Source of the DNA: Marchantia polymorpha subsp. ruderalis
Taxonomy: Eukaryota; Streptophyta; Marchantiopsida; Marchantiales; Marchantiaceae
DNA length: 64,000 nucleotides
NCBI GenBank assembly: GCA_037833965.1
Contig: AP031357.1
Location: 9,506,001 to 9,570,000, forward strand
Direction: 5' to 3'
Shown here piece after piece: positions 12,709-18,137 of the stretch. The position numbers and the translations under genes are program-made. The notes below the pieces were generated by a model that ran no database searches, was not told where the DNA came from, and saw nothing but the letters and a program-made list of their open reading frames with translations. The first letter of the stretch is position 1. Each line of letters begins with the position of its first letter.

Positions 12709-14207
12709 TGTGGTACCCCACTTTTGGCAATTTTGAGGAAATTAAAACATTTTTGGAAAACTGTACCCTGGCAGCATTGTAAATAGCCTTCGGTACATCA
12801 AAACAGAGTGAATCCGGAAGATCGCGGGGATTCTTGAGGGATCTTGTAAAATCTGGGATTTGGGGTGCCGCAGTAAGGACAGGCACCACCCTCCCTGCGA
12901 GCTCCGCAGTTAGGATCTCTACGGCGCAAGGCGCAAAACCCGCCTTCGGAGGTTGCGTCCGCGGCTGTAGGGAAACCCTCCCTAATTAGGTCAACCCTCG
13001 GGCGCCTTGACCAAGTTAGGGTCCCGTTGGAAAGAGCTCGACGCGCTGATTCTAACGAGCCCAGGAACGCTTGGAACGGATGAGGGCTTAGGAAGTTATC
13101 GCTACTGGAAGAAACGGAGGCGGTCGCCTACGGCGGAAGGAGTTCGCCACCGGCGCGAATTCCGCCTACGCGGAAGGAGGAATCAAGTTTTGTCCTATGC
13201 GCGGACGTAGGCGTTTGCCTGTGCACAGGCGAAGTAGGGTTAGGGAAGGCGCGAAGTCCGCCTACGCACAGGCGAACGCCTGTGCACAGGCACTTCGGCG
13301 TCGGCGGAAAATCCGCCTTGGGCCCTAGAAATGCGCCTTGTGAGGTAGAAAGTGTACGGCGCCTTCCGCGCCAGCGCAGCGCCGCGTACGTCGGAAGAGC
13401 CGCCAGAGTAATCCCATCGGTACGGACCATGCGGACGGCACGGGTGGATGCGCTCTTGGACGGACGAAGTTGCGGCGGCGGAAGCACCGACGGAGAGACA
13501 AGGAACGGACAGACTGGACGGAGACGGCTGACCACGGTCAACGCCTTCCGCGCCAGCGCAGCGCCGCGGACGGAATTCGCCTGCGCACAGGCGAACGCCT
13601 GTGCACAGGAGGATGTTCAAGTTCCGCATCGGCGGAGGATCCGCCGAGGCTCCTGCCTGCGCACAGGCAGGAGTTGAATTTTTGTCCGACATGCGGACAC
13701 ACGCGTCAAGGCAGAAGGAGATTGGCCGAGGGACGGTACGAACAAGTGTACCGCACAAGGCGGAAAACTCGCCTTCGGCGCTACGCCCCCATGTCCACAG
13801 GGTGACACGCTGGCGGAGTTCAAATCCGCCAATTCGAGCGTGAGAGTTTAATCGACGACGGCGGAGCGTGAAGCCGCGCGTGAGAGCGAAGACCGTTCCA
13901 GCGTACAGCCGGCGCGGCCATCAAGTGAGACGTTCTTCACGACCAAGAGCCGACCATGACCTTCGACCGGGCGGCGGAGAACGTCCCATTCTTGAATTCG
14001 CGATTCCAATCTCTTGTGCGCGCTGCGCGCATCCATCTGCTGGCTGCGGAACATTCTCGACGTCGTCACACAGGAGATTTCTTGTTGATTGAGGGAGAAG
14101 TGAGTGCTCGTGATTTGGAATTGAGAGCGATTAGAGTTTGCCGAGAGAGAAAGAAACGCGGGCAGTGCGGAAGTAGAATGAGCGGGCGAGCGAACCCCAG
14201 GAACGCA

Positions 14208-17173: not shown

Positions 17174-18137
17174 GGTTCTTTCCCATCAGAAGTGCAGATC
17201 AGGAACCCATTTCCTTTGCGTGTTTGTGTCCTTGAGTTCTGTCACCACGCACGAGGAGTTACAACTTAGCGTTCCGCATTTTGTAGCTGAAGGCCTGCGG
17301 CCGAATGTTCAGAGCTAGTACATTGGTTAGAGACTTGAGTAGTTCGGATCTGCACCTGCGGGTGACTGCCGATGCTTAGAGCCAGTGACTAGTTAGATAC
17401 TTGAACAGTTTCGCCCCTACACCTTCGAGTGTTTCTTTCTGATTGTACTCCTTGGGATTTTTCCCCTGAATGCCAAAGTGAAGTTTTGCTACTTCGTGTA
17501 AGCCTTGGTTGTAAATTCAGGTTACGCTGCAGCAGGTGCCTTGAGGGTAACCCCTGTAGTATTTCTGGGAATGACAAGTGCCTGAGAATTCAAACTCTTC
17601 AATAGACTGTTGTTGTGTTACTGGAATGTTTCACAGTGAGTCCTTCAGTGCGGACCTGTGTTCTCTGCGCGTTTTGTGAGTTGAGAGTGTTGTTCACCGC
17701 GTAGGAGTGACTTCGATCCGAAGTAGGCAGTCCAAACCGGGTTTCCTACACTAGCAGCAAGCTAGTGGAAGTGTTGTAAAAGCCGGAGTTGGAAGTCACT
17801 GCCCGCAGCTTTGCCGAGTGTACTCTTGAGAGACTTTCCCCCTGAAATCTTGAAGTAGAGGTCCTAACGGATCTCTGGGTTGTGTTTCTGTAGTTTCAGG
17901 TGTGTGTGTGTGTGTGTTACGCTGCACTGTGCAACCTCCGAGTGCGCTCCGAGTGGACACTTGCAGTATTTCTGGGAGTGACAGTCGCCTGAGAATTCAA
18001 ACTCCTCAATAGTCTGTTAAAACGTGACACTTTGTACCCTGTGTGTTCCTCTGTCCCTGTGGGTTCGACCTTTCTACCACTATATTGCAGTTTTAGCCTT
18101 TAGTGGGTTATTACATAAGAAGCCGACAACTTCTTTT

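What the first reader, a model, noticed from the sequence alone, without database searches (positions are those of the whole stretch)
12709..18115. A ~966-aa gene encoded inside the LTR (U3) of a plant-type Ty3/gypsy element
Seen directly: both LTRs of A2 hold the same open gene, with the primer site directly after one LTR and the polypurine tract directly before the other, so the gene is in the LTR and not in the interior. It lies upstream of the TATA box and hence in U3. Three copies here are intact (14208, 25299, 52717). Established parallels are MMTV sag in U3 and lentiviral nef overlapping U3. Inference: the element carries a 3' accessory gene that every LTR, even a solo LTR, disperses through the genome. 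I know of no described plant element with a multidomain ~1000-aa U3 protein, but I cannot search. This is the best candidate for an undescribed system.
Basis: partly seen in the sequence, partly recalled or inferred. Interest (0 to 1): 0.88.

Follow-up and report, generated by a model that had tools for sequence, protein, structure and literature searches.

The report
Selected gene inside liverwort retrotransposon LTRs
A very common jumping gene of a liverwort carries a complete protein gene, kept by natural selection, inside the long repeats at its two ends, a place where plant elements are not expected to keep a whole gene; what the protein does is not known.

Summary
In element A2 (12709-29208) two 5.3-5.4 kb LTRs flank gag-pro (18202-21030) and pol (21031-23871). 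Each LTR holds the same sense gene, 14208-17108 and 25299-28199 (966 aa). PBS, PPT, TG...CA ends and 5-bp TSDs place it in the LTR; a TATA box 35 nt after its stop places it in U3. It is no chance frame: in 22 LTR copies differences by codon position are 802/712/1743, against 641/678/596 in adjoining non-coding U3; dN/dS is 0.22 among 13 intact copies (pol 0.06); 45 of 51 indels are multiples of three. At 36 of 40 sampled LTR/internal junctions the gene, complete or partial, precedes the junction in sense, down to about 50% protein identity. All named relatives are from Marchantia polymorpha or Riccia. The protein has a helical N-domain, a disordered middle with basic motifs and a C-terminal coiled coil; no known domain was recognised. 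Most likely it is a nuclear accessory protein at the 3' end of the genomic RNA, copied into both LTRs because the PPT lies upstream. Expression and function are not shown. New variant of a known kind (MMTV sag; plant extra ORFs).

The parts
12709..18115 (+). 5' LTR of element A2 (5407 bp, TG...CA)
   Evidence: self-comparison, ends and TSD
23909..29208 (+). 3' LTR of element A2, 0.47% diverged from the 5' LTR
14208..17108 (+). LTR (U3) gene, 966 aa; the frame is open from 13929 with a further ATG at 13956 (1050 aa)
25299..28199 (+). same gene, intact, in the 3' LTR of A2
52717..55605 (+). third intact copy of the gene, in LTR 51218-56612
17143..17154 (+). TATA block GGTATAAAATAG, 35 nt after the gene's stop; sequence upstream of the start site is therefore U3
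18138..18155 (+). primer binding site TGGCGCCGCTGCCGGGGA (tRNA-Asp type, from recall)
18202..21030 (+). gag-pro frame (Retrotrans_gag, zinc knuckles, weak aspartyl protease match below its cut-off)
21028..21036 (+). in-frame TAG CAA TTA between gag-pro and pol (TAG-CAR-TTA in 13 of 13 sequences that could be aligned)
21031..23871 (+). pol: RT, RNase H, integrase; no chromodomain or additional RNase H listed by Pfam
23896..23906 (+). polypurine tract GAGGAGGGGGG just before the 3' LTR
9175..12708 (+). 5' part of an older solo LTR of the same family into which A2 inserted (continues 29209-31086; TSD CCGGC)
29209..31086 (+). 3' part of that solo LTR
33563..39180 (+). solo LTR, TSD GTGCA; a 637-bp internal (gag) piece replaces part of the gene (36779-37415)
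6289..8844 (-). homologous gene (851 aa) of family B in a B solo LTR (5336-9174 plus 31087-32122, TSD CTGGT)
40083..41750 (+). part of a broken family-B copy of the gene in a second B LTR

Best explanation
SHOWN: a sense accessory gene of about 966 codons lies wholly in U3 of a Ty3/gypsy element without chromodomain, and of its diverged subfamilies, in a Marchantia-type liverwort; its protein sequence is kept by purifying selection in the replicating lineage. FOLLOWS from LTR biology (recalled): the RNA starts about 30 nt after the TATA box, so the genomic RNA reads R-U5-PBS-gag-pro-pol-PPT-[gene]-R. The gene holds the position of env or of a 3' accessory ORF, but the PPT lies upstream of it, so reverse transcription copies it into both LTRs and every solo LTR keeps it. 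INFERRED: the protein is translated from a 3' transcript (a spliced subgenomic RNA, or one from a promoter in the first 1.2 kb of U3 that ends in the same LTR), enters the nucleus through its basic motif, oligomerises through its coiled coil, and serves the element's own replication in trans, for example transcription, RNA export or chromatin. The origin by a shift of the PPT to the upstream side of an existing 3' ORF is also inferred.
For: LTR anatomy, TSDs, PBS, PPT, TATA. Codon-phase bias in the gene and not in the neighbouring non-coding U3, over 22 copies, broken ones included; 45 of 51 indels in frame (counted per copy, so a shared indel counts more than once); 12 of 22 LTR copies without stop or frameshift. 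dN/dS 0.22 among 13 copies chosen as intact, 78 pairs, against 0.73-0.83 in pseudo-frames of non-coding U3 and 0.06 for pol; in the same 9 elements 0.218 against 0.062. Two-state codons without gaps among the 13: singletons 63.5 synonymous to 73.5 non-synonymous changes, shared by three or more 25 to 8; the 5' and 3' LTR genes of A2 differ by 5 synonymous and 11 non-synonymous changes. So selection acts on the replicating lineage and not visibly on the inserted copy. 36 of 40 junction loci carry the gene, complete or partial, in sense before the LTR end (34 of 38 without the near-duplicates L013 and L014); 35 of 40 show the PBS core after it. The subfamily-C copy L049 is a solo LTR. Model: helical N-domain (block pLDDT 85-94 for residues 81-170), low confidence through 216-675, helix 723-886. 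A Marchantia polymorpha gene model (P0032) contains VVPHFW, the translated LTR 5' end, shortly before sequence of this gene.
Against: No RNA or protein evidence. No domain or fold recognised (the few weak Pfam matches of relatives, such as Extensin_1 in 3 of 42, look like composition). A PRKRKW-like basic motif was found in 27 of 41 proteins by a simple pattern (two of them the window's own; many are fragments) and not in the Riccia protein; localisation is inferred. No promoter or splice acceptor was identified, and no plant predictor was run. The start codon is uncertain. Full-length (non-solo) elements of families B and C were not shown. At 4 of 40 junctions (L022, L027, L044, L048) the gene was not seen in place.
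Confidence: 0.6

Rival explanations
1. A long frame that is open only by base composition in a GC-rich, young LTR; no gene.
For: GC is 54-62% there, and an opposite-strand frame of 296 aa exists over part of the gene.
Against: Strong third-position excess only within the gene, in-frame indels, dN/dS 0.22, homologues down to about 50% identity.
Confidence: 0.01
2. A host gene captured by one subfamily and carried along without function.
For: The protein has no named relatives outside Marchantia and Riccia in the searches made.
Against: Present in the LTRs of several diverged subfamilies and selected in the replicating lineage. All named relatives are hypothetical proteins without a precomputed Pfam domain, and P0032 is itself an LTR fusion.
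Confidence: 0.05
3. An Env-like or particle-associated structural protein in the env position.
For: Sense orientation and position 3' of pol, as in plant env-like extra ORFs (PMC7264820, parts 1 and 2 of 3 read); the coiled coil.
Against: No hydrophobic stretch of transmembrane type (highest 19-residue Kyte-Doolittle mean 1.14); basic motifs instead; no similarity to this element's gag-pro by profile comparison.
Confidence: 0.12
4. A self-acting regulator: the protein binds short palindromes in its own U3 and lifts silencing or activates transcription, in the manner of VANDAL VANC proteins (recalled).
For: 3 to 5 copies of CCTGYGCRCAGG in 10 of the 15 U3 regions counted, all of them family-A-like; basic motif and coiled coil.
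Against: The motif is absent (B, C, L009, L012) or single (L046) in the other 5 regions; 10-base palindromes as such are not in clear excess over shuffles there; no DNA-binding domain recognised.
Confidence: 0.2

Closest known systems
MMTV sag (betaretrovirus), and lentiviral nef overlapping U3
   Same: A 3' accessory gene in U3 of both LTRs; Sag is called an LTR-encoded protein in PMC11998498 (passages read). The position relative to the PPT and the nef parallel are recalled.
   Different: No sequence relation was tested; Sag is described there as a type II transmembrane protein, while this protein has no transmembrane-like stretch, is about 966 aa and lies in a plant Ty3/gypsy element.
Plant extra/additional ORFs (eORF-3'F, aORF-3S; antisense Transposase_28 ORFs of Retand, Grande gene23)
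   Same: Accessory ORF 3' of pol; some of these proteins are nuclear or carry an SMC-like domain (PMC7264820, parts 1 and 2 of 3 read; PMC11963269, passages).
   Different: Those are described in the internal region between pol and the 3' LTR; here the gene is in U3. No PF04195 or PF20167 match was found.
CRM-clade chromoviruses whose gag-pol frame runs into the 3' LTR
   Same: Plant Ty3/gypsy coding sequence downstream of the PPT (PMC3605345, passages).
   Different: There it is only the chromodomain end of the polyprotein; here it is a whole separate gene.
[not shown]
   Same: No chromodomain, no additional RNase H found, very long LTRs, liverwort host (PMC10508981 and PMC6317226, passages).
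   Different: No tree was built here, so the lineage is not settled; the passages seen describe no LTR gene.

Membership tests
LTR retrotransposon, Ty3/gypsy | two LTRs, PBS, PPT, TSD, gag and pol in the order RT-RNase H-integrase | tested here: met
Gene in U3 (sag-type position) | complete frame between the LTR 5' end and the TATA box, in both LTRs of one element | tested here: met
Gene in U3 (sag-type position) | expressed from a 3' LTR transcript | not testable with these tools
   no RNA data at hand
MMTV Sag family | sequence homology to Sag | not tested
   no Sag sequence was compared
Transposase_28 (PF04195) / Transposase_32 (PF20167) accessory proteins | profile match | tested here: inconclusive
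   neither is among the 25 of 36 families shown for 42 members at E up to 10, nor found in six-frame searches of the genome, but the control genomes rang in neither of those searches; distant homology is not excluded
Chromoviruses | chromodomain at the integrase C-terminus | tested here: not met
   no chromodomain in the Pfam scan of pol at E up to 0.1, a sequence profile test only
Tat lineage with additional RNase H | additional RNase H (aRH) domain | tested here: not met
   [not shown]
Env-like plant ORFs | transmembrane segment | tested here: not met
   (hydropathy only)

The most novel reading that the evidence does not exclude
Every LTR, solo LTRs included, is a complete transcription unit for a nuclear, oligomerising trans-factor that acts back on palindromic sites in the same U3. 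The genome would thus hold a dispersed, self-amplifying regulatory system made of LTRs alone, in which solo LTRs go on supplying the factor to distant full elements.
Probability: 0.15. Interest if true: 0.92.

Novelty: new variant of a known kind. Interest (0 to 1): 0.72.

Why it matters
Plant extra ORFs are catalogued in the internal region, up- or downstream of the polyprotein. A large, selected gene inside U3 shows that such surveys can miss accessory genes, that 'solo LTR' need not mean 'non-coding', and that an arrangement like that of sag also exists in plant elements. With 1376 matches to the LTR/internal junction in 241 Mb (709 forward, 667 reverse, up to 3 mismatches) in what is probably a Marchantia, the role of an accessory ORF can be tested in a model plant, and the LTR location gives two copies per element that date each other.

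Tried and rejected

Relation to Transposase_28/Transposase_32, thought of from recalled domain layouts: not supported. Relation to this element's gag-pro: none. The sigma-70 type scan of the upstream U3 gave nothing and is the wrong promoter type for a plant.

Palindromes in U3 as a conserved binding array: only in family-A-like copies, so kept as a rival and not as a result.

Dropped before counts: of 40 junction loci (L009-L048), 22 were used for the LTR-wide comparison; L013 was left out as a near-duplicate of L012, and 17 others because the LTR in the stretch was incomplete, nested or too diverged. For dN/dS 13 intact copies (3 of the window, 10 loci) were used; L021, L025 and L038 had frames over 900 aa but were left out because my start motif was not found in them. 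Of 14 pol stretches, 2 (L050, L054) did not align; of the 12 that did, L057 and L060 each hold one stop in the pol part. L048 was read at the wrong place for its PBS. The 40 loci come from exact matches to a 31-base junction word on contigs C1-C3, so they are not a random sample, and R/U5 conservation near the junction is biased by that choice.

Literature: 10 of 10 searches used. Listings were capped at 12 to 40 rows. No title or abstract start listed describes a plant element with a whole gene in its LTR, but the library holds only open-licence papers, so this is no proof of novelty. Passages of PMC9985172, PMC5784723, PMC12885004, PMC3087523 and PMC1560396 were also seen and held nothing on the point.

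Full report
WHAT IS THERE. The window lies in a 241-Mb genome of 9 contigs. Its host is most likely Marchantia polymorpha or a close relative. This is an inference from protein relatives: P0019, from an unnamed source, is 98% identical over 305 residues; two M. polymorpha models match closely over short ends (P0032 75% over 441 columns with gaps and 92% over the last 38 residues; P0039 98% over 58 residues), though most M. polymorpha hits are at 40-70%. Element A2 runs 12709-29208: LTR 12709-18115, PBS 18138-18155, gag-pro 18202-21030, pol 21031-23871, PPT 23896-23906, LTR 23909-29208. It carries a 5-bp TSD (GGCGG/GGTGG) and is inserted in an older solo LTR of the same family (TSD CCGGC). A further solo LTR, 33563-39180, has TSD GTGCA. 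These insertions fix the LTR ends independently of one another.

THE GENE. Each LTR of A2, and LTR 51218-56612, holds an intact sense frame, with the ATG at 14208 (966 codons) shared with family B and a second ATG upstream at 13956. The stop (17106-17108) is followed 35 nt later by GGTATAAAATAG; the block GGTATAAA[AG]TAG is in 10 of 10 sequences aligned across subfamilies. The gene is therefore in U3, and in the genomic RNA it is the last gene.

SELECTION. Across 22 LTR copies aligned to the window LTR, the differences at codon positions 1, 2 and 3 are 802, 712 and 1743 in the gene, 641, 678 and 596 in 12709-13928, and 157, 145 and 190 in 17109-18115; chi-square P is 4e-131, 0.07 and 0.04. Of 51 indels counted per copy in the gene 45 are multiples of three, and 12 of 22 copies have neither stop nor frameshift. 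If 60 substitutions were placed at random with the spectrum of the non-coding U3, 18% of genes would stay free of stops; at 155 substitutions 1.5%; L038, at 155 differences, is free. dN/dS among 13 intact copies (78 pairs) is 0.22. Family A against family B gives 0.15-0.21, with saturated dS. Controls: pol of the same family 0.06 (13 sequences), in the same nine elements 0.062 against 0.218 for the LTR gene; pseudo-frames of the non-coding U3 0.73-0.83. The two LTR genes of A2 itself differ by 16 substitutions, 11 of them non-synonymous, which is about what drift gives. Selection is thus on the replicating lineage.

SPREAD. The junction word was found 1376 times (709+667) with up to 3 mismatches, and never with the reversed control. 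Of 40 loci fetched, 36 carry a sense gene homologue, complete or partial, next to the junction (not L022, L027, L044, L048; L013 and L014 are near-duplicates of L012 and L011, so 34 of 38), and 35 show the PBS core TGGCGCCGCTGC (not L018, L019, L027, L040; L048 was not read at its junction). Protein identities reach down to 54% (L011, L014) and 48-76% (L016), lower in the disordered part. Family B (solo LTR 4870 bp, TSD CTGGT) and a subfamily-C copy (L049, about 4.9 kb, TSD GCACT with one extra base on one side) also hold the gene. Full-length B or C elements were not shown because the search meant for them did not complete. The M. polymorpha model P0032 contains codons that match the translated LTR 5' end (VVPHFW) just before gene sequence, which places that gene in an LTR too.

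THE PROTEIN. AlphaFold2 gives a helical N-domain (residues about 10-215, best part 81-170), a Pro/Ser-rich low-confidence part (216-675) and a long C-terminal helix or coiled coil (677-925). A PRKRKW-like basic motif is in 27 of 41 proteins and RPKQKAR (once RSKQKAR) in 18 of 41, counting two window copies. There is no transmembrane-like stretch. No family or fold was recognised. One search found 8 relatives (7 M. polymorpha, 1 Riccia sorocarpa); one search found 38 (33 M. polymorpha, 5 unnamed; the Riccia protein is not in its list). Both scored only the 8000 candidates that share most words.

HOW IT MAY WORK. Because the PPT lies upstream of the gene, plus-strand synthesis makes it part of U3 and strand transfer copies it to the 5' LTR. 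This follows from standard LTR replication (textbook knowledge, recalled). That the protein is nuclear, oligomeric and acts in trans for the element is inference. The upstream U3 (12709-13928) is poorly conserved except for its first 100 bp and a few blocks, so no promoter or splice site can be named.

Noticed in passing
window 21028-21036; loci L051-L053, L055-L063: gag-pro and pol are in one frame, separated by TAG followed by CAATTA (CAGTTA in L055), the TMV-type read-through context (recalled); conserved in 13 of 13 sequences that aligned, of 15 examined (14 fetched plus the window).
   Followed up: partly
G000 C3:22624116-22646511, C2:31351104-31384656, C3:20847426-20880702: Copies spaced by one LTR plus internal region (11.1-11.2 kb): look like tandem LTR-internal-LTR-internal arrays.
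   Followed up: no
G000 C1 about 2.3-2.9 Mb: Five junctions recur about 406.4 kb further on (2336147/2742516, 2343113/2749480, 2412002/2818371, 2447295/2853664, 2474616/2880985) on the small 5.6-Mb contig, perhaps the sex chromosome: a large duplication or an assembly feature.
   Followed up: no
window 36779-37415: A solo LTR whose gene has a 637-bp piece of the internal (gag) region in place of about 390 bp of LTR: an LTR/internal chimera, perhaps template switching.
   Followed up: no
L019, just after the LTR end: LTR end and spacer are followed by the inverted polypurine tract, which would fit integration of an element copy into itself.
   Followed up: no
window 17109-18115: R/U5 is far more conserved than the rest of the LTR (0-6% against 6-26% divergence per 100 bp in 7 older copies); the junction-based sampling biases this near the end; perhaps a structured leader.
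   Followed up: no
window 13199-13669: Clustered palindromes CCTGYGCRCAGG in the U3 of family-A-like copies, absent from B and C.
   Followed up: partly
window 3045-4727 and 56722-58404: A 98% identical inverted pair of an RT-bearing region, one arm directly after a B-type LTR end without a PBS.
   Followed up: no
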